DNA of 64,000 bases from Arthonia radiata (Eukaryota; Ascomycota; Arthoniomycetes; Arthoniales; Arthoniaceae), in the NCBI GenBank assembly GCA_002989075.1, contig PSQN01000015.1:372001-436000 (forward strand). Direction: 5' to 3'. Each line of letters opens with the position of its first letter. The stretch's first letter is position 1. A program made the position numbers and the translations under genes. This document shows, piece by piece, positions 25,944 to 43,996 of this stretch. Below the pieces are notes generated by a model that did not search any database, had not been told where the DNA came from, and saw only the letters and a program-made list of their open reading frames with translations.

Positions 25944-28900
25944 TCATGCGCGCGCTTTAACATGCCATTTCTCAGCTGTAAAGTTGAGCACTGTACCCTC
26001 CAGTCGCGCTGGGTCCACGAAGAGTTTCAGCTGAGGCTTAGCGTCCAGTAGCCGATACACGCGTGCAAGAACAAACACCGTGCCTGTCCATGGGGAAAGT
26101 GTGAGCTTGTGTCTATGCATCTAGGCTCGGTTGATCAGCTTGCGTCTCAAAAGGCTAGTAGACGCGGAGACTCACTTCTTTATACTGGTTGTGAGACATG
26201 TACAGACGGTCTGAGCAATCTCCTGTGGTTGCTTTGACTTCAAAGATGAATCTGACATTCTTGAATAGACTGTTCGGATCCAGAGGCAGTGCAGGAAAGT
26301 CAACATAGCTGTGTTGACGCAGCCACCCCTCGAGTTGGCCTGAACAGTCATCGACCACGATGTCCATATCTGATCCAAACCAAGAAGTCAATCCTTCATA
26401 CTCACTCAGCACTGACACGCGATCTCTTATACTACTCTGCCAATTATCCAGGCCAAATAATGGCAGTTGCAAATTGCGCAACGTTTCGTAGACCTTGACG
26501 TTCCGGTCAGAATCGAGTCAAGTTTCTCACAGGCGGTCAAGTACACTTACAAAGAGCTCGCCAGCCGCACCAATTTTAAACGTGACATCGTCCGCATCAA
26601 CGACGTCGCCGAAAACAAGCGCCCGACTCAGGGTGGCCTCCTTGTCTGGTGTGGGTATCGAGTACGACACTCCTCGGACAGCGTAAAGCAATCGGCGCAG
26701 CAAGCGATGGTATTCAGCAATGTGCATTGCTCTAACATCGCGATCTGCGCCAAGCCTTAATTCAAAAGGTCGTGATAAGTTGGAATGTTCGATTGTTAGC
26801 GATGGTCCCGAAAGTGCATTCTGCTGCTCAGGGTGATTTTGCAACGCAGTCTCTGTAGCGAGATTCAGTGTAGATGCGTCCTGCCTGGACTCGAACATGG
26901 AGCCCTGGTCCTGAATGTCAGCGGTTGGCATAAGACGTTCGTCTTCTTTGAGCTCGATCTTTTCAATCCAAGACAGAAACGGGGCCTGTGCTTCTTCTAA
27001 GATACCGTAAACATCGCCCAACTCTGCCTTCCATAGTTGATAAAGCCAGTGGTCTGCGGCATTATCTTTAACTCCTAGCACGTCTCGTAAGAGAGTGGGA
27101 AATGATGCTCGGAGAGATCTACCCAAATCGCTCGGTGACGCTGGGAAATAGAACGCGATATTGCCAGACTGAAGACCAGCTACCTTCGGCCCCACATGGT
27201 CAGCCTTCTCTGCGACATACTCATCGCCAGCGAGCTCCAGTCGAAGCTCTGTCCGCAGGTCATCCGAGAGGAGAATTTCGGCCTGCAGCATGTGCTTATA
27301 GGTAGCTGGATCGTCAATGAACTGTCGGCTCCTGTATTTTGCGGCGCAGCTAGTCACATCAGCTCACCGAGTCGCGTGTTGAATAGATTTGGTAGTGCTT
27401 ACCAAGAGAATGCATATGCTCGTTTACGGAAATCTTCTGTCATGGCCTCGTTCAATGTAGACGTCTCCGGCTCAGAAACGACTTTAACTCGGGCTGAAAG
27501 GTATCTACCCTCAAGGCCAAGCTTCTGGAAGAACCAGTGGAGCTTGTGAGATGTATCCATGTCGAAGTCGAGGACTTCGACTTGCTTAGAGAACTTAGAG
27601 GCGTAGACAGCGTGATCATTGATAAAGAATTGGTCGTTGACGCATCGCAAGACCTGATGCTGCCCGTTGACTCGAGTCGGTAGAAACTTGTACTTCGACT
27701 GCTCGAGCTGCTTGAACTGCTTGTCGAACACAGACATATCCCCAACATCGTTAGCGGCAATCATGTTGCCTAGTTGCTGCATGACTGCAGTCAATTTTCC
27801 GATGTCTGGCGTCGTGTTCTGACTCAGGCTTTTCAGCTCCTTCAGTAGCCAAGCAGCATCAACGGTAGGCACACCGACTTTGTGTACGAAAAAGGTCTGT
27901 AGACTGCTATACTTCTGTCGAAGTCGAGGCTTTCCGAGATCAGTTACTGCGAAGTCCCAGACGCAATCGGAGGGTTTCAACCATTCTCCGTCAACGAGGA
28001 TGAGCTTCCGTTCGAAATGGTCTCTGTATGGCATTAGCAAAGTCTTTTAGCTGCACTTGTTTACCGCTAGGAGTTCATTAAGGAGTTCATCAGGACTTGC
28101 CTCAGCATACACTGCTCTTCGGCTTCTTTGTAGTCATATACATCTAACGCCTCGTACACCTTGGCTGCGGTAACTGCAACATCTTTGCGGTGCTTGTTCT
28201 GTTTCAGGTGTTCAAGTTCTTTGATTATGTCGAGAGAATCAGCGTTTCGAACTCCGAGGATGTCCACAAAGAGCATTCTGATCCCGTCGGAGCCACCATA
28301 GTATCTCTCAAGCGTGACGCGTGTGCTGATGAAATCTGGACTTTTCCACAAGCATTCCGCAGGAACTCTCCAGTCGGTTCCGTTCTTAGGATTGCATATG
28401 CCTTTCTCTTGCTCAAATTTAGCCTGAGTGGGTTAGCTCATGCTCACGGAAAAGCGTACCGCACAAACCTTGATTTCGGTATGAGTGTCTTTGTTTGCCA
28501 TGCTGGCGACTCGCTCATAGACTTTGAATGCAGCGTTCAACTTTTTTTCGGTAGACAAGTCTTCACGACGTCGCAAACAACCAAGTGCGAGCAGCCAGAA
28601 CTTCATGTCAGCATCAAATCGCACTCCAAACCTAGTAAGGAAATCCCAATCATTCACTCGAGCGTCCGGCCGCGGTAACATGACGAATGGCATGTATGAG
28701 CGAATATGTAGAGTCTCTGCGAGGCTAACCAATTCCCCTCCAGGGAAATAGGAGAAGTGGAGGGCCCAACGTTCGCCGTTCGTGCACAAAACTGTCCGTG
28801 CTCCAATCAGCTGGGCAGAGCGAGCAGACTGTTGAGCTTCTTTGGAGTATGATGATAGCCAATGCGTTTGAAGCGTTCCTAAGAAAAGTACGGAGTCCGC

Positions 28901-31282
28901 GTCAAGGACTCTCGATAGGATAGAGGACATCTTGGACGTTCCAGACACTTGGCGGCCAAGCAGCGGAGGATAGTGGCGCACAGAGAACACTCTCTCCAGC
29001 CAGTGCTCCCAAGTGTAGCCTTTGTGATATGCTTCCGTATGCTTTGCGCGTATAAAATCCGTATGCAACACCAAGTCGGTCTCGAAAGAGTCATGGACGG
29101 ATTTGTTCTGCTCCACGATAGCTAGAAGGGCCTGCGCATTGTGCTCGCCATCAGACGGAAAATATAGACCGTCCCTGAAAGGGCGCATAACGTTGCCAGA
29201 CGATACTGCCCATAGTCTGTCGCGATCCATCTGTTTATTGATAGTGCCATCGTAATGGAGGAATCTCAGATGCAAAAGCATCGTTTCCCTGTTCATGGTT
29301 TTGCGGCTCATTCCCGATAAATGCCAGTCCAATATCTTCTTCCTGACAACATCGATAGTACAGTCAGACACACCGAGTCTTTCGTACAATGAGCTACGAT
29401 CTCCGGTCTTCAGAGCGCCAGGGTGAACCAATTTGAGGCCCAAGTTTGTTGGAATTTCCTGCTCGTCAACATACGGGAAATAGATCGTCTCGGACGGCGT
29501 TGCCCAGGTGTCGTCGCGCAGGGGAATTATCGTCATTCGGTGGATTCTGTTCGTTAGAGAGGCCGTACCAGAATCTGCTGCATCTTCCAAAACTCGCTCA
29601 ATAAATGTCGCAAACGTTGTGTGCCATGATTCACTCCAAGGTATTGCCTTTAACCTCGACGAGGACTTGGTACAATCTGACTCTGCGCGATAGAGCATCT
29701 CAGACCAAGTGATCTTGCGCATGCCTAAATCCTGCAACTTCCTCTTGAAGCCCTTTCGAAGATAGGAAGGGGAGAGATAGATAGTCTCAGAGAGGGTGTC
29801 GTCAAAGAGAGGTGCTTCGTCATGCAAGAAGCATTTTCGTAGCATGACAAGCTTGGATGGGGTCGAAAGACCGCCGCTCCAAGGCTGAAGTATCGGCTCA
29901 CTCTTGAGTGATTTAAAGATGTTCAGTGGGAGATGAGACCAAAACCCGTCGATCGCGTCGACGGGTAGGTATTCGAGCCATTCGTGAACGCAACCCTCTG
30001 CAACGAGCGCCTTCATCGCTGTCACGAACAGTTTTCCAACGTTTGTCCGTAATTGATCGTTCCATTCGCACGACACGATATCCTCGCGACTATTGGTCGT
30101 GATAAAATCAGATTGTATCACGAACTTTATGTGCACGCCAGGTCAGTAGTGGTACTTTATGGGCTCATCCGAGGATTGCTTAGCTTACCGGGATGCTGCG
30201 CTGTTGGGACACGGGCAAGAATGCGAAGATATTCTCTCCCACTTCTCGGGGACAAGCTGTGAGATTGAATACGTTCACAGGCAGGCCCAATTGCACTTCC
30301 GCACTCAGAACCTGTCGTCTTTCGTCTTCTGGCATGCCAGAAAACTTCTGCTTGAATAAGCGATATCTCTTTTTCTCCACCAGATTAGCGAAATCGGAGC
30401 CCTGTTGCGTTTTGAGCGTCACAATCTCGCGACGAGGAGAGGAGAACGCCGTGCGCTCCTTCTTAAATTCGCGATCAGCTGGTGTGCTGCCGTCGATTGT
30501 AATGTCTCGGAAGACTATTCTAAAAACAGCCACCTTGCGCAGGAACATGAGAGTGTTGTGGGACAGGCCTTCCAAGTCGCGGGCAATGCGGTGGGTATAG
30601 CCTTCATGGTAGCGCAACTTTATGCGTGTAGTCACTCCTTGCGGCAGTTCCTGATGGTCCACAGATAGAGGGCTGACAATACTCAGCGGCCGTTGTCGGT
30701 GGTTCTCAAAGTGGAAGGACCAAAAGCCGGATTGAATGCGAACATCTTTCGCGACGTTGAATACGGATTTGAAACCAATGCCTTTTTCGCCAATAGAATC
30801 GTCATCAGCGGCAATCTTCTTCGAGCTTTCGTTTACAGCGCATAAAGCTTTCACGTTGGCTGCCTTGAATCCGTCTTCATTGGTGTCAATGATCAGATGC
30901 TCAGCATCAAGCGTGAACGTCAGGCCCGGTTCCTCCGGGGACGAATAGCTCACGTCATCCGCATTTTGAACGAGCTCGTATAGATACCTCGACGGTGTCG
31001 AATAGATAGCTGAAACCGTGCTGGTATTGAGATCAGATTTGTACCGAATATCCTCCAGTCCGAAACTCACAATCTGATCAGTTTCTCCTTCTCCTCCCTC
31101 AGACTCTGCGACATTCGATCAACATATGCTTGTGATCTGTCTCTTAGATTTTGCAGATCTTCTGAAACGTCACGCGGAGGATTGCCGTGACCGGCCAAAA
31201 TTTCATCGAGTACTGCCACCGCTTCTGGGACCGAGGTGGGTTCTCGCATTTTGTTGTCGCCAGTTTTTAAGGATGCAGCCAT
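25944..31282 (-). CDS. NO VEIN-like/sacsin-like HATPase protein with C-terminal DUF3883-type domain, eight exons
   Basis: Exons 31071-31282, 30189-31020, 28469-30124, 28101-28423, 27403-28023, 26551-27349, 26176-26493 and 25944-26105 join in phase to give 1640 residues. The N-terminal third is a GHKL (Hsp90-like) ATPase: LYELVQNADD at about residues 84-93 is the N-box, and GEKGIGFKSVFNV is the G1 box with its phosphate-contacting glycines. FVIQSDFITTNSRED follows, as in sacsin/NO VEIN proteins. The C-terminus reads FIFEVKATTGD, SHNQYKE and, after the last intron, SPWTGTVFVLARVYRL, which match the nuclease-like DUF3883 fold with its E-x-K core. The 77-bp fourth intron starts with GC (AG|GCAAGT), and only this choice restores a family-like CMLRDHFERKLI join. 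Other introns are 45-70 bp. Plant NO VEIN acts in cell-fate decisions; the fungal role is unknown. Confidence 0.85.
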
Positions 31283-32571: not shown

Positions 32572-33496
32572 TACAATGAATTAACAGCCAAGCTTTCATA
32601 ATATATTCTTGAATTTAATCTGCTAACGGAACTCAGACGATCGAAAGCATTGTCGACGTCCTACGCATTGCTATCTGCGTGGTTCTTGAACACGCCTAAT
32701 GAGCTCGTTTGCGGGACGTCGATGTCAATCTTAGCATCGGGAATTAATAGTGTTTAGGTAATTTCGTGGCACTCGTCTTACGGTTGTCTGCGAGTATGAT
32801 AGTTCACGAGTGCCTGAATTAAACACCGACCGCCACATTCCAAAGGGGCAACAACATTCTTCCATTGCCGTCCAACCAGAGAATGATCGCGTCCGCTTCT
32901 CACATCTGCTTAAATACGCCACGGATCAAATGTTTCGAGCTATATTCTAAAACTTGTATTACTTGCACACAACTGTTACGGCAGACCTTGCAGCTGTACC
33001 CGTCCGTTGTCACGGTCGCCATAATGTACAACATCTTCTCATGGAAGATGCGGCTCATATCTCATTGTCTTCACGACGCAACACACGTAACACGCAAGGG
33101 CGATATGCGAAAGGGTTGAGAATGGAAGTACGCGCCGCTCATGGCTTTGTAGACAACGTGGCCACATTCAAAGCACCCTTTTCGTTACCAGGTTTCACAT
33201 TGGGGCCGATAGCGAATGCGGCGCATTCGACCCGATTATTTTGAGCTCCTTTGGCCAAGTGTTCACTAACAATGTTACGGAGCTCCGCAAAAGCACAGGT
33301 GTTTCCCTCCCAAGATGGCTCGTCTTGAACATGAGCGTCCACGACCTCCATTTCGCCCCACCACCCCCAAACGACGCTCCTTTCTGACACCATCGCACAA
33401 CGTGTATATCGCCGCGGTATGCGGCGGCACTATTCCCACAGCAAACCTACAACGTCACAGTCATTCGCATAGACCAAGGATCTTCAAACCGCAGCC
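32572..33496. other. Intergenic, no supported gene
   Basis: About 925 bp, including the upstream side of the tRNA and the promoter of the gene starting at 33497. Short frames on both strands have no domain. Confidence 0.45.
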
Positions 33497-34474
33497 ATGC
33501 TGCGCGTCTTCTGTGGCTGCGTTCTTGCCTTTTTGGCAATATGCATACCGAGCATCGAGATAGCGGGAGTCAGACAGTCAAACACAAGGAAGAAGAATGA
33601 GAAGCAAAAGAAGTCTGACGAGGAGCGAGCAGCCAACCGCATGCATCACTTCCCAGACGCACCTTCCGAGATCGGGTCGGAGAAGAACTTCCCTGGGCAC
33701 TCAGATGGGAAGTCGACGCCCAGCGATGAGTCGCAGCGCGATCCTGTCTTCGATGCGATCGTTACCTCGGGCGCGAACACGGACGTCGGAGAGTACGAGC
33801 ATGACAAACTCAGGCAGTGGGAGGCAGAGCACGCGGCGCCTGCTCGTGCAAGCGCAGTCGCACATGCGCACAGGTCGGTCAGCGAAGAGGAGTTTGACAG
33901 AATTATGCGCGCGGTTGCGGAGCACAACAAGAGGATCTCGCATATGCCTGGTGAGGTGTCGCGCGCATCATCAGGTCTCGAAGGGAACAACATGCGCAAG
34001 GTCTTGCGTGACAGCCCAGATATCAATGAACATCCAGCAAGAGAAGGAGAACAAATGCACAAGATCCTGCGCGACAGCAGAGACAGCAGTGATCACAGCT
34101 CACAAGGAACCACGCAAGTCAACACGCCCGAGCAAGAGGACGAGGTCCAAGAAGTGACACTTTACGAAACACCGGAGGGGTTGATTCTACCTTCAATACC
34201 AAACGTTTCCGGGCCTAATCGCACTTCGATGTACGATGCTATCCAAAGCATCGCTCTCGCTCACAGCCGGTACTCGCATGCACCGGAGGTTTACCCCGAG
34301 GAAGACTCCACAGACGAGACACTGGCACCGGAGGCACTCATACAAGATATGCGTGTGCCCGGACTCTCAAGCCCAGGTCGATCGTCGAGGTACTACAAGA
34401 CAAAAAGGAACATTCGTGATCACGCCCCGAGAGGCCACGAAGAGCCGGATGCGCCAGAGATCTCGACGACGTGA
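33497..34474 (+). CDS. Unrecognised protein with N-terminal hydrophobic anchor or signal
   Basis: An ATG in good context opens 325 residues. The first 24 residues (MLRVFCGCVLAFLAI onward) form a strongly hydrophobic helix fitting a signal peptide or anchor, followed by a basic segment RKKNEKQKK. The rest is charged and probably disordered, with two similar short blocks, NNMRKVLRDSPD and EQMHKILRDSRD, that suggest an internal repeat of about 23 residues. The frame ends at a sequence that also reads as a donor (GTGAGC at 34473), so the true gene may splice into the open frames that follow. No function can be assigned. Confidence 0.55.
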   Translation: MLRVFCGCVLAFLAICIPSIEIAGVRQSNTRKKNEKQKKSDEERAANRMHHFPDAPSEIGSEKNFPGHSDGKSTPSDESQRDPVFDAIVTSGANTDVGEYEHDKLRQWEAEHAAPARASAVAHAHRSVSEEEFDRIMRAVAEHNKRISHMPGEVSRASSGLEGNNMRKVLRDSPDINEHPAREGEQMHKILRDSRDSSDHSSQGTTQVNTPEQEDEVQEVTLYETPEGLILPSIPNVSGPNRTSMYDAIQSIALAHSRYSHAPEVYPEEDSTDETLAPEALIQDMRVPGLSSPGRSSRYYKTKRNIRDHAPRGHEEPDAPEISTT

Positions 34475-35599
34475 GCAAAGCAGGTCAAGGACGCCATGTC
34501 TGCAACGCTTTGCACTTCATCTCGTGAACAAGTGTCGAGATGCCACCTGCACCACTGCGGTCTGACGTACCGTACTTCTGCTCTCGACGGCCGCGCAAGC
34601 TGAAAATTCCAGCAGCCTCGCCAGCCGCCAGTGCCCCACAGATATAACAATCTTCGCACTGAGTCTTGGAAACGACTCCGTTATCAACTACAGCGGCACC
34701 GCACAGCATCATGCTCCAAGCGAGAAGACCGCGGGACAAGGTGCTCAAGATCGTCCACGCCTCCTCCTCAAGCAAGAGCAGCCGCGCACAGAAGCGTGTT
34801 GTGCTGGAGAAGGGCGTCGTGTCGAGCGGGCCTTTGGGCTAACCGCGAAACACCTCACGGGAGTGACTATCACAGCCCTTCTATGACGAACCTGAAGCAG
34901 CAAAGCCTCCGTGCAAGGACGTCTACAGCGACGTTTCTCAACCTCACGAGCAGACCCCAGACACTTATCTCAAGGCCGGGTATCATTTCCGATGCCCACT
35001 GGACGTGCTGAAGCACACATAAGAATGTGCAGCCACTCCAACAGCATTCGTAGATCTTGTAAGACTAAAAAGTAGCTTGTTGTTTTCACGCTCTGTTATT
35101 GAAAAACATACTGTACAATATCATGAATGATTCTCACACAAGGTTCTATCTCGCACAAGCCGGTTTCTCATCCTTCGCGCATACATGTTGCTTTCTCCGA
35201 TCATCTGACATCTCACAAAGTCCGAGACATCTCCATGTCACCCACCCCAAAAGCCCTCTACTTACATATACGTCAGCTTACGACAAACTCTGTAAGCCGC
35301 TCTTTCATTGGCCCGCTTGTTTTAGCGTCGCCCCCATTGACATATAACACAACAACTAGGCTACTGTCATAGTCCTCGTACCCTACCCACGCATTCGTCC
35401 AATGCTCTCGTAAACACAGTCAGCAACCCCCCCGACCCGTCCGGCGCCGAGCTAAATACACGTTACCATCTGCAAAGCCAAGGCATATATCCTCACATTT
35501 ACTCTTTCCACTCGGGCCACCCTCCTTATAAAAAAAGATCCTCTGGCACATCTGTACTAACCACCTTAGCATAACTACATCGCATCGAATATCCCCAGA
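34475..35599. other. Region of overlapping open frames, unresolved
   Basis: Between 34580 and 35020 all three plus frames and one minus frame are open for long stretches. One plus frame reads VLLLSTAAQAENSSS, like the end of a signal peptide, and continues DITIFALSLGNDSV; another ends RCPLDVLKHT-stop after an acceptor at about 34879. Either the gene at 33497 continues here through introns or a separate small secreted protein is encoded. I cannot choose between them. From 35030 to 35599 there is no supported gene. Confidence 0.35.
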
Positions 35600-35814
35600 A
35601 TGCCCCTCCACAAACCCGGCTGGTGGCAAGCCTTCAAAGAATGGTGGAAGGACAATGTCTACGGTAAGGAAGGTGGCTATCAGAGCCACGGAACCACGAA
35701 TCCTTATACCACCGCGGCGCTGAACGGCAATCAGAGTGTGTTTTTGCTTGTTATCGTTTGAATGGGAGTGCGCTGACTGTTGCAGGGATGGGCGGGGGTT
35801 TTGACGGAACATGA
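35600..35814 (+). CDS. Small tandem-family protein, copy A, two exons
   Basis: Exons 35600-35735 and 35786-35814 are joined across a 50-bp intron (GTGTGT..TGCAG, phase 1), giving 54 residues. The N-terminal half is tryptophan-rich and basic (GWWQAFKEWWKDNVYGKE), then GGYQS, a Thr/Asn/Ala stretch with NPYTTAALNG, and a glycine-rich end GGGFDGT. The exon 1 length (136 nt), phase, the W--FK-W..GGY layout and the end of the intron (TGGGAGTGCGCTGACTGTTG) match copies B and C to the right. No family is recognised. The protein has no signal peptide or membrane segment and should be soluble, possibly nucleic-acid or membrane-surface binding because of its basic aromatic helix; that is speculation. 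Confidence 0.6.
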
Positions 35815-37183
35815 GACGGCGTTTGGTGGTAGTTCAGATGCGAGTGCGTCGTGTGGCTAAGCTCGAGCGTACGTGAGGTATGTGACTCGGTGGGTTTAGG
35901 AGAGTGTGACGCCGTGGCGAAACCTGATTTAGAGGGAGTCCTGCCTCACGTTAGGCGAGCCAAGAACGACGGCACAACTCGCATCGTCTACCAAAGACCT
36001 CGCACACTTCCCTGTTTTCTCATCACAAAAGCCCGGCCCCCTGTAGCCCTCTTCGCGTCTCTTCTTTTTACACTTAATTGTCTAAGTGCGTCTCCCAACT
36101 CACATGTCACAACGTCCCACTCCGGTCTTCGCAACGTTTCCCCTCTCCAGCGCTCAGCCCCAGCCTCGCATACAGCAGCAGCGCAGCAGCATGGAACTTA
36201 CGAAGTGTCACGACTGATAGAATCGCCGCGTTTGACGACGTCCTCGTCAAGTCTCGTGAATTGGCTTGTACTGGTTGCAGTCCGTAAAAGTGGTGGGAGG
36301 AGTACACCTGAGTTAACGAAAGTGGCTATCCCGGCGACGGAGGCACCGACACCATGGCGTATCACAACGCAGCTTGAAGGCGGTGGTGCACCCATTAACG
36401 GACGCAGGTTTGGATGTGTTTTACAGATCGTCGTTGGTACTGGGTTGACTACGAGTTACTAATGAGGGGCTGGGAGATCATGATGGCGGCAACGGCGGAT
36501 ACTGAGGCAGGTACATGGTCTTACAGGAGTGGTGTGCAAGCGTTTAGTCAGGTACGAGGATGAAGTCGTAGCGCGAGCTTGGCCGGGCTATGGATGCAGC
36601 CATAATGAATTCCACGGCACTTACTTGGAGACCAGCGGTGCTTTAGCCTGGTGCAATGAAGCGTCCGACGCGTCGACGAGACGTAGATATCGCCGCGAAC
36701 AGCCCCGTAAGATTGTGAAGGACTTCATATCAACCTCAGCCCTCGCTTCTCAAGGTAGATCGCATCCGCAACGTCAAAGTGGGGACTTCCGCCTGCATAG
36801 CAGTTGCTCTCAAGGTAAGGAATGTGACATCATGCCTCATTACTTTGCACGCATGTAGAAGCCAAATCACGGTGCCGCGCCGGCTCGCAACCAACGAATA
36901 CGTCGTTGCATCATCTGGAAGGACGCGCAGGGCCATTGCCCTGGAGCAGATACACCTGGAGCAGATACGAGCACAGTCAGCTGGCATACCTCGCCCCCGT
37001 TCGCCACTCTGCAGCACCTTATACGATCATGCCAGCTTTCGCTGACTCTACTACTTCTCCTCGCAGGCTCAACCCATCCTTCGACATTACTCCATTGCAG
37101 CCCGCACCATATATTCTACTTACCCATAACTCGTCTTCCTCATACATTCAGCGCACTTTCGGCGCATACACAGACGTACAGTC
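35815..37183. other. Intergenic spacer between copies A and B, with a 3' flank shared by the family
   Basis: The first 150 bp resembles the 3' flank of copy C, for instance GTGACGCCGTGGCGA at about 35908-35922 versus GTGACGGCGTGGCGA at 38113-38127, and a degenerate GCCT/AGGC stem at 35943-35956. Frames at 35851-36462 and 36906-37358 overlap these repeats or the next gene and are not supported as genes. Confidence 0.5.
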
Positions 37184-37376
37184 ATGGGCAAAGACGCATA
37201 CGGCCTCAACCGCTGGCAGCGCTTCAAGGCTTGGCTGCACTTCCCCAGACCTCCGGGGTGCAAAGGCGGGTACACAAGCAACGGCCCTTCTTACACCGCA
37301 AAGTCCAGTGGGGCTTATCGTGGGTTATGCGCTTCTTGGTTGTTTGGGTGTGTGCTAACTAGGGCCAGGGAATTGA
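37184..37376 (+). CDS. Small tandem-family protein, copy B, two exons
   Basis: Exons 37184-37319 and 37363-37376 are joined across a 43-bp intron (GTGGGT..CTAACTAG, phase 1), giving 49 residues. The sequence starts MGKDAYGLNRWQRFKAWLHF, continues PRPPGCKGGYTS and SYTAKSSGAY, and ends RPGN. Exon 1 is exactly as long as that of copy A, and the start MG-DA-G--RW-R-K-W is shared with copy C. Without splicing the frame stays open to 37414 (76 residues), so intron retention would also give a protein. The intron carries a perfect CTAAC branch site but only four nucleotides lie between it and the acceptor, so the acceptor choice is uncertain. Function unknown. Confidence 0.6.
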
Positions 37377-37547
37377 GGATGCTGTTGACTGGGAATGACG
37401 AGGTGGGGGGATGATGGTGGTGATAAAGGCGTGGTGAGTTCGGGTGGTAGATTTTATGGGTCGGTGTCGGAAGAGATGAATTGGGTGTTAAGGGGTCGGT
37501 GTGGGTGTGAGTGTAAGGTGGTCGTGAAATGGGCCAGTGAAGGAGTC

Positions 37548-37570
37548 CGCCTCGCGTAGCAACCGAGGCG
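37548..37570. repeat. Stem-loop in the 3' flank of copy B
   Basis: CGCCTCG at 37548-37554 pairs perfectly with CGAGGCG at 37564-37570. The same seven-base arms occur 3' of copy C with a different loop, so the stem is kept while the loop varies. Confidence 0.7.
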
Positions 37571-37758
37571 CAACCAGTCCACATCTCTTCTCCAAATGCA
37601 TGTTCAAACTTCATATTTCATGTCATTTCTTCATCATGATCGTCTCTACTAGTTGGAGGTCACATCATCCGCTCCCATCACATTGTTTAAGTCACCAGAA
37701 ACCCATCGTCTTTCGTACGTTCGGTGTATAACACAAACCTTTACTCAATAGAAGAATC

Positions 37759-37990
37759 ATGGGCGAAGACGCCAACGGCCCCACACGCTGGGAGCGCGTG
37801 AAGCGCTGGCGCCCCAGTTTTCCGAGGCTCCCAGGGTGTAGAGGTGGATACTCTGGCGGTGGGACAATTAACGCTTATACCATGGAGCGCCTCAACGGCG
37901 GCTGTGGTGCGCTTGGTCACCTCTGTACTGTTTGTTTGTATGGGAAGTGCGCTGACTGTAGCAGGGTTTGGGGCTTACACGGGAACATGA
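37759..37990 (+). CDS. Small tandem-family protein, copy C, two exons
   Basis: Exons 37759-37906 and 37965-37990 are joined across a 58-bp intron (GTGCGC..TAGCAG, phase 1), giving 57 residues. It begins MGEDANGPTRWERVKRWRP, continues FPRLPGCRGGYSGGGTINAY and ends GFGAYTGT. It shares the PGC[KR]GGY core with copy B and the NxYT...LNG...GT ending with copy A, so it links the other two. The intron 3' part, ATGGGAAGTGCGCTGACTGT, is nearly the same as in copy A. The unspliced frame is also open (80 residues). All three copies point the same way, 1.6 and 0.6 kb apart. Function unknown. Confidence 0.62.
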
Positions 37991-38146
37991 AGTGGTTTTA
38001 GATTGTGGGGTGGGTAGGTGGGAGGCCGAGAAGGGTGGGTCGGAAGGAGATGAGTCGTGTAGGTAGGCTCGGGTGGACGTGAAGGGAGAGGATTGGTGGT
38101 ACTGGGGAGAATGTGACGGCGTGGCGAGGTCGGTTTCAGGGGAATC

Positions 38147-38171
38147 CGCCTCGCGTATCGAAGGCGAGGCG
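38147..38171. repeat. Stem-loop in the 3' flank of copy C
   Basis: CGCCTCG at 38147-38153 pairs with CGAGGCG at 38165-38171. It is the counterpart of the copy B stem, located about 155 bp after the stop codon; in copy B the distance is about 170 bp. Confidence 0.7.
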
Positions 38172-39003
38172 TAACTAACCTGACAGCTTTCTTCTTCACC
38201 CAATCTCCATATTCCCCGTGTTTCCTCATCGCAAGCTCCTTTTCCCTCTCCTCTCTGTCCCCAGGCATCGCATAAAGCAGCCACGCACTAGCATTCAACG
38301 TTTCAGATAGCGGAATTGCACGATTCGACTACGCTTTTAGCAAATCCCGAAAACTGGAGGCATGTTGAGACTGGCTGGCGGATGATAGGTACCGCCGTCA
38401 GAAAAGGAGAGTGCAGTCTGGAAGATTGGCAAGGCGGGTTGTTTAGCTGCTGTGAATGTCTCTGAAGGCCTGGCGTGTAGAATGGCTCGTTAGAGGCGTG
38501 GGGTTGCGAGTGATGGTTGTCAACAAAACCGCGCTGTGGGGTGGAAGGCTTGAAGGCTTTGCGTCTACGTGAGTAAGTCCACACAGCTTTGCCTGGGGTT
38601 TCTGGTCCTGAGGTTGCACTGTGTTCTTCAGAGAGCGGGTAGGTAGAGAAAGTCAACCTTCAACGCTGCCATGCGATGAAACATGTACTTGATCAGCCAG
38701 GCGCCCTGTTGACGGTAACAATTGACTGACGAGAACTCGCACGCCGCTGCTCCCTAAGTATGGTTATTCCGTGCGCCGACGGCGAAACGCATGGATGTAA
38801 CATCTACCATCGACGACCTTTGTGTTGCATGCCAATTGGCTAATCAAGCCGTAATGGTATAATCACCGTAATACTATCGTAATCACCCAATGTAATTCCT
38901 AATCGCTAGTGTAAAGCTACTGCGTAGGGTTCAAACATGACCTATTCAAAGGCCACGTGGTAGGTCACAACGGCCGAGGGCCGTAGCCACTGACGCCGCA
39001 TGG

Positions 39004-39027
39004 CACTCATGACCTCGGCCATGAGTG
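39004..39027. repeat. Perfect 8-bp inverted repeat
   Basis: CACTCATG at 39004-39011 is mirrored by CATGAGTG at 39020-39027 around an 8-nt loop. A second pair, GTTACAGG near 39110 and CCTGTAAC near 39150, lies close by. These could be the remains of a small inverted-repeat element. Confidence 0.5.
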
Positions 39028-39356
39028 GTCCTGCAAGATCTATTTGCGTATAGACATCGGTGGTATCCAATGTTGCCAGATCACATATAACTCTAGTGGA
39101 TCACGTAAGCGTTACAGGTGAGACCCACCGTGATCACGGGCCGTGGAGGCCTGTAACGGAAAGTGTACCGAGTCATGAAAACTGGACAGCTGGACAGAGA
39201 CACTTGTGTGCATGCTCAACGGGATCGTTGGGTTATGTTGCTGTCTTGCTGGCTATCGCATGCAGTGATCTCATCAACCACAAGCGCAGCCCCAGCACCT
39301 AGCGAAAGCGAGAGCGAAGCTATTGCCGTTCACTCTCATCCTGCACGAATAGCACG

Positions 39357-39584
39357 ATGCCTGAGAACAACGACAAAGAGCGAGAAGGCTCTCGAACCTC
39401 CACAGAGCCCCAGCAGCCCAAGCAGCCCAAGCAAAAGGGACAGAAAACGGCCAAGATCAAGAAGTTTTTTACAGATGAGGAATACCGCCACAGGAAGCTG
39501 CACATATACCAAGGCGGCGGTGGTGGGAGCAACGCCTATATGAATCAGGGCGGAACGGCGTTGGGCGGTGGATCTGGATATTGA
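39357..39584 (+). CDS. Small Lys/Gly-rich protein, possible distant relative of the tandem family
   Basis: A single frame of 75 residues from an ATG. The N-terminal 35 residues are charged and Gln/Pro/Lys-rich, followed by AKIKKFFTDEEYRHRKLHI and a glycine-rich tail GGGGGSNAYMNQGG...GGGSGY. The basic aromatic helix followed by Gly-rich sequence with an NAY motif echoes copies A-C (NPYT, NAYT), and it lies 1.4 kb beyond copy C on the same strand. The resemblance is weak, there is no intron, and low-complexity composition alone could explain it. Confidence 0.5.
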   Translation: MPENNDKEREGSRTSTEPQQPKQPKQKGQKTAKIKKFFTDEEYRHRKLHIYQGGGGGSNAYMNQGGTALGGGSGY

Positions 39585-40586
39585 AAGTATTGAGTGTGCA
39601 TCAAGCACCTTGCGGTCGACGAGGTTAAGGAAGCCGGACTATGAGCGACTTCAAGTGACACATGAAGAGACCCTCGAAATACTACGCAGTAACCTTTGTT
39701 TGTTTGTTTGGTGTATTGCAAGGCTTCATGGATACTATCTTGAGTATTTAGTGAGGCTGATCAGTGCGAACGCTGTCCAAGCTGCTCTTGCTGGAACAGC
39801 GTCACCTTACCTTGCGACAACATCGCCAGGTAAGAGAGAAACACAGATGCGATTGGCCTCGCCGCATGTCTTCAATGGGCATCGTGGTCTGGCAAGGTAT
39901 CCGTGCTCTTGAGATGGCGGGTTTGTTGATCTCCAGGCAGTTGAGCCAAGCCTCAATGCGGTGATCATCGGACACGAAGAGCGTCAAGGCGACACAAGAA
40001 GCCTGGCAGTACGAAGTCATGGCAGCGACGTATATTAATGCACCAGCTGCTCGTGCCGTAACAGAATTCATTGTTAGATATATCGTTCAACTTACCTGGC
40101 CTCCGCAAGGGCCACTTTGCTGTGCGAGCCGCTTCACACTTTCGAGCCAGTCCGGCCGGCTTATAGCCATAGACTAACAATACGTTGAGTACTTTGAGTA
40201 TTAGTAGCACCCGCTGTACACCAAGTGAGGAGCCAAAGTAGGATGATTCAATAAGGGGACTGCTCGAAAATGGTTTGAGCGCTGCGTAACTGGATGCCTC
40301 TAAGGGAAGAGCATGCGCTCGTGACAACATACTTGCATCGTTCCCGCATGTATAGGTCGAGGCAGCTCGACCGGCGCCAGAGTGCTGGAGTACCATGTTC
40401 AGGCAAAACGACTCTGCGATAAGAGTAGTCGGACATGATAAAAGTCGCCTACTGCAATCGCTGTTACAACACACCGTTGCCTGCATTGCATTACGCTAGC
40501 TATAAAGTTTGGGGTCAGCAGGTCTTGAAGAAACTCACATTGCGGCCCACACAACTCAAAATAGCGCATTTGCTTTTCTTCATACC
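39585..40586. other. Intergenic, no supported gene
   Basis: About 1 kb. The minus-strand frame 39965-40486 is long but has no domain and no coding-like composition. No repeat or RNA gene was recognised. Confidence 0.4.
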
Positions 40587-41905: not shown

Positions 41906-43996
41906 ATGCCACGATACGATATACTGCAGCCACATCTTGGCACCAACTGCCAAGCTTTATACGACACCTCATCAAGAATAGTCACGGCGCCGCCTTGTCT
42001 AGTGTACCCGCGCACTTTGCACATGGACATCGACGAGCGGCCCCTTTGCGCCCTCTGTCGCGACGTAAACCTCACGCCATGGCTCACGTACATTATCCAC
42101 GAGGGCAACCCAATCGCGAAACCCGCCTCTTGGAACGCCACGACATATCGCGTGACGCCAGGCGACCTTAAAGCCTCCGCCGACGCCGGATGCCCTTGGT
42201 GCATCCGAGTCGCACTTGCAGACAGCAACATGCCGGATTTTTGCAAATTGACGCGGCTTGAGCTAGGCGCTGAGGTTCGGCTCGTCTGCGATGCTACCGA
42301 GAATGCTTCTGCTAGGCTGGTCACCTCCCGGATCGTTCGCGCCATTGTCAAGCCTTTGCACGATCCGCCACGTGACCCTAAGCCAGAGGAGATCCCCTTG
42401 TCTTTTGCTGCGAAAGTCGTCTCTGACGAGTACTTGAGTCCTGCATTGGATCACAAGAGTGCAACGTGCTTAGAGTATCGACTGGACACTACCGTGCAGT
42501 GGATGCGAGAATGCTGGCAGGAATGCATCACCTCGCACGACAGCTGCAGCGCATGGGAGAACTCGCCGTTGCCTACTCGCGTGCTTGACGTCTCCGACAC
42601 TGGAGGTGATACCGCCGCTCTTGATAGCGATGTTAGGGTGCACCTCTCGGCGCCTGGAGAGAAAGCTCCGTACACTGCGCTCTCGTATTGCTGGGGCGGC
42701 CCCCAGAAGTTGAAGCTGACGAGTCTCAACATTGACAGGCTGACTCGCCGGATCCGTATCGTAGAATTGCCTCAAGCAATCAAAGAGGCAGTCTGCTTTA
42801 CTCGACTGATCGGTGTTAGGTATATATGGATTGATGCGTTTTGCATACTTCAGGACTCGCATGAGGACAAACGAAGGGAGATCCGCAATATGCGGAACAT
42901 CTTCCAGAACACGTACGTGACGATAATCGCTTACATGGCTGCTAGTGTGTACGAGAGCTTTGTCAGAGGTCCCAAGATCTTTCGAGTCAATTCATCTGGA
43001 CCCCATCCTCTGCCTCTCGCCCTAGAATCCTACCGGGAAACAGATTGGCGTGGTTTTCTAGGTTATGCATACTTTGACGAGCCTGTCAACCGCCGAGCAT
43101 GGACATTAGAAGAGCGACTACTGTCTCCGCGTCTCGTGATCTTCTCGCAAGCAGGACCGATCTGGCAGTGCCAGACAAAGCATCTGGCGATGGGGGACTC
43201 CCGCAAATTGCCATGGATCGAACATGACTTTGATGAGGCCCGGATTGCTTTCGCACGACTGCCATCCGCAGCAGCAACTCAAAACGTGAGCAAGATCTGG
43301 TGCAACATCGTGGAAGACTTTTCCGGTCGGGCGATGACAAGGTCCTCGGACAAATTCTTAGCGCTCGCAGGCGTGGCGGAGGCATTTCAAAAAATTGCAC
43401 CCTCGACTTTAGGAGAATACTGCGTCGGGATATGGAAAAAGCTGGCTCTGGAAGGCCTGTCATGGAGTACTGTCTCGTTTCCGGAGGCCCTGAAGCCTAA
43501 GCCGGCCGGCTATCGAGCTCCTTCATGGTCGTGGGCTGCGATCGACGACGGCGTTCGATACATCGACATCAAAGGGGGCGCTTTTGTCGCGCAGCTAGTG
43601 GAGATGCACGTGGATCGCGGGATCGATAGCTACGAGTTTGGCGCTGCTTTGTCCGGCCATGTGGTCCTACGAGCTCCCACTATCGACGGGTTCTGGACCG
43701 GGGGGTTCAGTACGAGCGACGTTTCCCACCATTGCAGAGCCTTTGCAACAGACCCACACACGGGTGAAGAGAATTCGTTCGGTACTTTGGCGTACGCTGA
43801 CTATTTAGGTGTTGAGCCTAGATGGACTCGTCGTGCGATGCGTGCCATCTGGCTGACAGAACTTTCGGATTTTGGACTCATTCTCGAGAAGGTGGATGAG
43901 GAAGCATACGCTCGCGTTGGTTCATTTTTCGGCACGGAAGATGAGGATGTCGTTCGACGGCGCCTGGCCAGATGGGAGGAGACCAAGATTGTATAA
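41906..43996 (+). CDS. Heterokaryon-incompatibility (HET) domain protein
   Basis: A single uninterrupted frame of 696 residues; a second ATG at 42023 gives 657 residues and starts at MDIDERPLCALC, which I think more likely. An N-terminal CALC..CPWC pair precedes the domain. The HET domain is complete: PYTALSYCWGGPQKLKL, the central VRYIWIDAFCILQDS with the invariant W-I-D-x-x-C-I-x-Q-D pattern, the EIRNMRNIFQNTYVTIIA helix, and the downstream NRRAWTLEERLLSPRLVIFS. HET proteins trigger cell death when genetically different hyphae fuse; many paralogues have unknown partners. The domain is related to TIR folds. It is divergent from the F-box-like gene, a common arrangement only by chance as far as I know. 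Confidence 0.92.
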   Translation: MPRYDILQPHLGTNCQALYDTSSRIVTAPPCLVYPRTLHMDIDERPLCALCRDVNLTPWLTYIIHEGNPIAKPASWNATTYRVTPGDLKASADAGCPWCIRVALADSNMPDFCKLTRLELGAEVRLVCDATENASARLVTSRIVRAIVKPLHDPPRDPKPEEIPLSFAAKVVSDEYLSPALDHKSATCLEYRLDTTVQWMRECWQECITSHDSCSAWENSPLPTRVLDVSDTGGDTAALDSDVRVHLSAPGEKAPYTALSYCWGGPQKLKLTSLNIDRLTRRIRIVELPQAIKEAVCFTRLIGVRYIWIDAFCILQDSHEDKRREIRNMRNIFQNTYVTIIAYMAASVYESFVRGPKIFRVNSSGPHPLPLALESYRETDWRGFLGYAYFDEPVNRRAWTLEERLLSPRLVIFSQAGPIWQCQTKHLAMGDSRKLPWIEHDFDEARIAFARLPSAAATQNVSKIWCNIVEDFSGRAMTRSSDKFLALAGVAEAFQKIAPSTLGEYCVGIWKKLALEGLSWSTVSFPEALKPKPAGYRAPSWSWAAIDDGVRYIDIKGGAFVAQLVEMHVDRGIDSYEFGAALSGHVVLRAPTIDGFWTGGFSTSDVSHHCRAFATDPHTGEENSFGTLAYADYLGVEPRWTRRAMRAIWLTELSDFGLILEKVDEEAYARVGSFFGTEDEDVVRRRLARWEETKIV

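What the first reader, a model, noticed from the sequence alone, without database searches (positions are those of the whole stretch)
35600..38171. Tandem trio of unrecognised small spliced genes with shared introns and 3' stem-loops
Seen directly: three same-strand two-exon frames (35600-35814, 37184-37376, 37759-37990) share exon 1 length or near-length (136, 136, 148 nt), a phase-1 intron, the RW-x-R-x-K-x-W and GGY layout, and for copies A and C almost the same intron 3' end (GTGCGCTGACTGT). Their 3' flanks are also related. The proteins (54, 49 and 57 residues) match no family I know. The local expansion, the change of protein sequence with conservation of gene structure, and the accessory neighbourhood suggest a fast-evolving family, possibly stress- or interaction-related; that last part is inference.
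Basis: partly seen in the sequence, partly recalled or inferred. Interest (0 to 1): 0.8.

Follow-up and report, generated by a model that had tools for sequence, protein, structure and literature searches.

The report
Small fungal tandem gene cluster, unnamed
A genome that looks fungal carries three small, probably spliced genes of one unnamed family side by side, with the wreck of a fourth between them: an ordinary kind of local gene family that was copied, partly shuffled and partly lost, whose job is unknown.

Summary
Three same-strand units (A 35600-35814, B 37184-37376, C 37759-37990) are homologous, and in the preferred models the intron falls at the same aligned codon and phase. The frames look protein-coding: similarity is best in the stated frame in 3 of 3 pairs, and second codon positions differ least in 3 of 3. 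Some details fail: A lacks RW-x-R and the 3' stem-loop, B is 47 aa with the likelier acceptor, and the splice donors look weak.

Added here: a fourth, broken copy D (exon-1 homology 36271-36381), and a spacer before D that recurs after C. Site patterns suggest mosaic copies (promoter plus exon 1 group AD/BC; the 3' part AC/BD). This signal is moderate and weakens in 2 of 7 alignment settings.

Own-genome protein searches found matches only inside this cluster. Pfam, Rfam, PDB, viral and prokaryote collections gave no relative. No other fungal genome could be searched, so age and spread stay unknown.

Best reading: a birth-and-death tandem family of roughly 50-residue, probably intracellular, mostly disordered Trp/Gly/Tyr proteins. 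The stress or interaction role is unsupported. It is interesting locally but ordinary in kind.

The parts
35600..35735 (+). copy A, exon 1 (45 codons + 1 nt)
   Evidence: in-frame stop upstream at 35567
35736..35785 (+). copy A, predicted intron, 50 nt, donor GTGTGT, branch site GCTGAC, acceptor CAG
   Evidence: alternatives with GC donors or other AGs exist
35786..35814 (+). copy A, exon 2 with stop
   Evidence: protein of 54 aa
36087..36277 (+). spacer between A and D, homologous to 38192-38377 after C
   Evidence: score 197; 0 of 300 shuffles reach it; blastn E 2e-4
36271..36381 (+). copy D, degraded exon 1: no aligned ATG, stops in each of two frames read and gaps of 2 and 1 nt against A
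   Evidence: nhmmer E 0.0011, profile of A, B, C exon 1; blastn to A, 65%, E 4e-5; 0 of 300 shuffles; translation in three frames; not detectable from B or C exon 1 alone
36408..36623 (+). 3' flank of D, similar to the B intron and 3' flank
   Evidence: score 126, 0 of 300 shuffles; highest shuffle 120; weaker to A (21 of 300) and C (11 of 300)
37184..37319 (+). copy B, exon 1 (45 codons + 1 nt)
   Evidence: in-frame stop upstream at 37127
37320..37368 (+). copy B, predicted intron, 49 nt, donor GTGGGT, branch site GCTAAC, acceptor CAG
37369..37376 (+). copy B, exon 2 with stop, shortened by a gap against A and C
37547..37571 (+). 3' hairpin of B (approximate limits)
   Evidence: 27-nt stretch -13.3 kcal/mol; the 61-nt stretch has z -0.7
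37759..37906 (+). copy C, exon 1 (49 codons + 1 nt)
   Evidence: in-frame stop upstream at 37729
37907..37964 (+). copy C, predicted intron, 58 nt, donor GTGCGC (uncertain), branch site GCTGAC, acceptor CAG
37965..37990 (+). copy C, exon 2 with stop; protein of 57 aa
38146..38172 (+). 3' hairpin of C (approximate limits)
   Evidence: 29-nt stretch -16.6 kcal/mol; the 61-nt stretch has z -2.7
38192..38377 (+). spacer after C homologous to that before D; no exon relic detected after it
   Evidence: 0 of 300 shuffles for the spacer; exon queries A, B, C and D all within the shuffles

Best explanation
A tandem cluster of one small protein-coding gene family: three intact two-exon genes (47-57 aa) and one pseudogene. 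It grew by duplication of units of about 0.6 kb that carry promoter, gene and 3' flank, and was remodelled by loss (D) and probably by exchange between copies. Shown: homology of whole units, one intron position in the preferred models, a coding-like substitution pattern, and a broken fourth copy. Inferred: splicing, expression, and the protein's action. The likeliest protein is a soluble intracellular, mostly disordered small protein with a short Trp-containing helix (W-x3-K-x-W) as a docking motif and a Gly/Tyr-rich flexible tail, made in dosage or variants set by copy number. The docking role is a guess of low confidence, perhaps 0.2.
For: Whole-unit homology. Same intron column in three proteins. 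BLOSUM62 score best in the stated frame in 3 of 3 pairs: 111 against at most 84, 71 against at most 35, 52 against at most 33. Second codon position differs least in 3 of 3 pairs. Amino-acid identity above random placement of the same differences in 3 of 3 pairs (the alignment was protein-guided, so this is biased upward). B/C exon gaps of 3, 6 and 12 nt. Introns of 49-58 nt with GCTRAC 10-11 nt before the end, against 47-58 nt and 11-13 nt (one ambiguous) in six actin/tubulin introns of this genome that I picked from 18 overlapping candidates; the branch motif was required in that scan. D broken. Helix at residues 10-17 in a low-confidence model. Hydrophilic proteins, GRAVY -0.8 to -1.1.
Against: No transcript or protein evidence. 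Donors GTGTGT, GTGGGT and GTGCGC are weaker than the GTAAGT-like donors picked. A/C exon 1 is less alike than their intron and 3' flank. DNA-alignment gaps in exon 1 are 7 nt for A/C and 8, 6, 12 for A/B, not all in threes. B and C also read through the intron without a stop. The model has mean pLDDT 53.5. Helix amphipathicity is above shuffles only in A (1.6% of shuffles reach it; B 72%, C 79%), and net charge varies from +1 to +7. No relative elsewhere to show long-term constraint.
Confidence: 0.62

Rival explanations
1. All copies are decaying: a formerly useful or never useful small gene was duplicated, and the three open frames are simply not yet broken.
For: D is broken; B has lost most of exon 2; A/C exon 1 is more diverged than the flanks; donors are weak.
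Against: Divergence of about 35-60% in exon 1 without a stop in three copies; when the same differences were placed at random, 69-82% of simulated copies gained a stop. Coding-like pattern in 3 of 3 pairs.
Confidence: 0.2
2. The functional product is an RNA with the 3' hairpin, and the frames are by-products.
For: The C hairpin is stable (29 nt, -16.6 kcal/mol; 61-nt stretch z -2.7) and B has a near copy. The pattern occurs 2 times in the own genome, at B and C only, and 0 times in the reversed control.
Against: A does not form it; B and C stems are nearly identical in letters, so there is no compensatory support; the 61-nt stretches of A and B have z -0.7; shuffles kept base composition only, and the stretches were chosen after seeing the hairpin. 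No Rfam match at E up to 1. The protein frame signal is unexplained.
Confidence: 0.06
3. Secreted effector-like peptides.
For: Small, tandem, with accessory-type neighbours such as a HET-domain gene.
Against: The N-termini (MPLHKPGWW.., MGKDAYGLNRW.., MGEDANGPTRW..) show no hydrophobic signal stretch by eye; GRAVY -0.8 to -1.1; 0, 1 and 1 Cys residues. No signal-peptide predictor was run.
Confidence: 0.04
4. Apparent mosaic structure is only rate variation between copies along the unit, not recombination.
For: With D shuffled, the A/B/C site classes alone still give part of the bias (means 12.7 against 5.4 and 10.4 against 14.2), and 1 of 100 shuffles reaches both excesses; 2 of 7 alignment settings have weak breakpoint tests (366 and 1045 of 5000 permutations).
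Against: 5 of 7 settings give 0 to 23 of 5000 permutations; the A/C homology runs on through a spacer to 36277/38377; A/B/C breakpoint test 0.0008.
Confidence: 0.4

Closest known systems
Lineage-specific tandem families of small fungal orphan genes (general class, recalled)
   Same: short proteins, tandem copies, a pseudogene, no Pfam family
   Different: here no signal peptide is apparent, and spread across species is unknown
Small fungal conidiation/starvation proteins such as CON-6, CON-10 and GRG-1 (recalled)
   Same: small, hydrophilic, Gly-containing, probably intracellular
   Different: no Pfam match at E up to 10; Trp-rich N-terminal motif not recalled in those families
wtf genes of Schizosaccharomyces pombe (PMC11497594: only the search listing and the start of the abstract seen)
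   Same: a fungal multigene family for which, as recalled, exchange between copies is reported
   Different: wtf genes, as recalled, have several exons and encode membrane proteins that act as meiotic drivers; nothing here points to drive

Membership tests
Birth-and-death tandem gene family | homologous copies in one cluster | tested here: met
Birth-and-death tandem gene family | pseudogene copy in the cluster | tested here: met
   D
Birth-and-death tandem gene family | purifying selection on surviving copies | tested here: inconclusive
   nominal dN/dS 0.28, 0.41 and 0.67 with dS 1.1-1.6; codon-position pattern; no orthologues
Lineage-specific orphan family | absent from related species | not testable with these tools
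   no other fungal genome is held; viral and prokaryote collections gave no relative
Any Pfam-A family (CON-6 and others) | match to a family profile | tested here: not met
   0 of 3 proteins at E up to 10
Any Rfam family | match to a covariance model | tested here: not met
   0 matches at E up to 1 over 35000-38800
Family recombining by unequal exchange or gene conversion | different trees on the two sides of a breakpoint | tested here: inconclusive
   AD|BC 25 against AC|BD 6 in promoter plus exon 1; 6 against 18 from the intron on; controls weaken it
Secreted effector | signal peptide | not tested
   no predictor on hand; none apparent by eye, GRAVY -0.8 to -1.1

The most novel reading that the evidence does not exclude
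The four copies represent all four combinations of two 5' modules (promoter plus exon 1: type p in A and D, type q in B and C) and two 3' modules (intron, exon 2, 3' flank and spacer: type p in A and C, type q in B and D). Exchange near the end of exon 1 thus swaps the promoter and N-terminal part of a tiny protein against different tails and 3' ends: a minimal, tool-free module shuffling system in a family of roughly 50-residue proteins.
Probability: 0.2. Interest if true: 0.5.

Novelty: new member of a known kind. Interest (0 to 1): 0.3.

Why it matters
If expressed, these are three genes of a length that gene finders often drop, in a family without a name. A cluster with intact, shortened and broken copies side by side is a compact case for watching how very small genes are duplicated, recombined and lost. 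Beyond that it is an ordinary kind of locus.

Tried and rejected
More copies elsewhere: the own-genome protein searches with C, A and B gave 3, 2 and 2 matches at E up to 10, all inside the cluster (the tool scores only its best candidates). The DNA search with 35500-38200 gave only itself.

More copies in the window: exon-1 queries after C lie within the shuffles (A 182, B 147, C 268, D 167 of 300 reach the score), and upstream of A likewise (A 15, B 262, C 238 of 300). nhmmer hits at 38520 (E 4.8) and 54724 (E 9.5) were rejected as chance.

Relatives outside: viral contigs (96, 50 and 17 pattern matches, none confirmed) and prokaryote genomes (55, none confirmed). PDB: one match at E 0.57, MsrA, rejected.

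Organism: 5.8S rRNA not found, so the class was not tested.

Amphipathic helix as the conserved feature: rejected for B and C. Structure comparison was not run because the model is of low confidence.

Papers: three searches; I saw listings and the starts of abstracts only, opened none, and none of the listed titles or abstract starts described this family; that is no proof that it is not in print.

Full report
What is there. The window is C12:372001-436000 of a 33.5-Mb assembly in 16 contigs. On the + strand, three units hold a two-exon frame each: A (54 aa), B (47 aa, or 49 with another acceptor) and C (57 aa). All three have an in-frame stop 30 to 57 nt upstream of the ATG. The protein alignment has ten invariant columns, among them W11, K15, W17 and GGY at 29-31 of C. 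In the preferred models the intron lies in the same column in all three, in phase 1.

Homology. In a self-comparison of 33000-40500, B and C align over 37080-37635 and 37653-38230 (58%, E 2.7e-18), and A and C over 35671-36028 and 37842-38234 (62%, E 1.4e-15). C's protein finds B genome-wide at E 1.6e-7 and A at 0.04; A's and B's proteins find only themselves and C. The listed matches all lie in the cluster.

Coding or not. The stated frame gives the best BLOSUM62 score in 3 of 3 pairs (111, 71 and 52, against at most 84, 35 and 33 in the other five frames). Differences by codon position are 14/43, 10/42, 20/42 for B/C; 26/48, 22/46, 32/47 for A/C; 27/41, 20/40, 27/40 for A/B: lowest at the second position each time. 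Nominal dN and dS are 0.42 and 1.51 (B/C), 0.76 and 1.15 (A/C), 0.67 and 1.64 (A/B), with dS saturated in the core. Against this, A/C exon 1 is 61 of 141 identical, less than intron (38 of 50), exon 2 (18 of 26) and 3' flank (68 of 104), and DNA-alignment gaps in exon 1 are in threes only for B/C.

Splicing signals. The introns carry GCTGAC, GCTAAC and GCTGAC, 10-11 nt before the end by the measure. A scan of actin and tubulin loci of this genome, which required such a branch motif and an open frame on both sides, gave 18 overlapping candidates in 13 loci. I read them as six distinct introns of 47-58 nt (L018 repeats L011), donors GTAAGC, GTGAGT, GTAAGG, GTAAGT, GTAAGT and GTATGC, and 11-13 nt from branch site to end (one is 6 or 13). 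Which donor is used was my choice, and no protein alignment confirmed them. Lengths and 3' ends of A, B and C fit; their donors (GTGTGT, GTGGGT, GTGCGC) look weaker. B and C also have an open frame through the intron, A has not.

A fourth copy. A profile of the three first exons finds 36270-36371 at E 0.0011; A against it gives 65% over 113 columns, E 4e-5, and 0 of 300 dinucleotide shuffles reach its score. B and C exon 1 alone do not find it (180 and 200 of 300 shuffles reach the score). It has stops in two of three frames and gaps of 2 and 1 nt against A. Its 3' flank resembles B's (0 of 300; A 21, C 11 of 300). The upstream comparisons are not significant (A 24, B 97, C 77 of 300). The spacer 36087-36277 before D matches 38192-38377 after C (0 of 300), though no exon relic was found after C.

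Mosaic copies. Among A, B and C, C is B-like left of a point near 37877 (43 sites against 13) and slightly A-like right of it (79 against 62; 0.0008 by permutation). With D, promoter plus exon 1 give AD|BC 25, AC|BD 6, AB|CD 1, and from the intron on 6, 18 and 5. Over seven alignment settings Fisher p runs from 6e-5 to 0.035, and the breakpoint test has 0, 366, 0, 1, 1045, 23 and 1 of 5000 permutations. With D shuffled the bias persists in part, and 1 of 100 shuffles reaches both excesses. Neighbouring sites are not independent. I take exchange between copies as likelier than not but unproven.

Hairpins. B and C have a 7-8 bp hairpin in the 3' flank, A has not; the pattern occurs twice in the genome, at B and C. 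Shuffles there kept base composition only, and the 61-nt stretches give z -0.7 (A), -0.7 (B) and -2.7 (C). No Rfam family matches. The hairpin is best taken as part of the duplicated unit.

The protein. All three are hydrophilic (GRAVY -0.8 to -1.1), net charge +1, +7 and +4, 15-23% Gly. The exon-1 part of C is predicted with mean pLDDT 53.5, with helices at 10-17 and 42-45 only. Amphipathicity is special only in A. A docking helix with a flexible tail is therefore a guess.

Known or new. No Pfam, Rfam or meaningful PDB match; no relative in viral contigs or prokaryote genomes, where none would be expected. Three paper searches, listings and abstract starts only, named no such family. Fungal proteomes could not be searched, so the family may well be known elsewhere under a hypothetical-protein label.

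Neighbourhood. Seven reading frames between 28433 and 45605 were scanned: one HET-domain protein (41906-43996) and one weak Sacsin-domain match below the family's cut-off (30180-31070); five gave nothing.

Noticed in passing
36271-36381: Degraded fourth copy of the family between A and B, with a 3' flank to about 36623 that resembles B's.
   Followed up: yes
36087-36277 and 38192-38377: Homologous spacers before D and after C; after C no exon follows that can be recognised.
   Followed up: partly
41906-43996: Single-exon HET-domain protein of 696 aa (Pfam E 1.7e-25).
   Followed up: no
30180-31070 and 28433-30136, - strand: Two long adjoining minus-strand frames; the first has a weak Sacsin-domain match below cut-off.
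   Followed up: no
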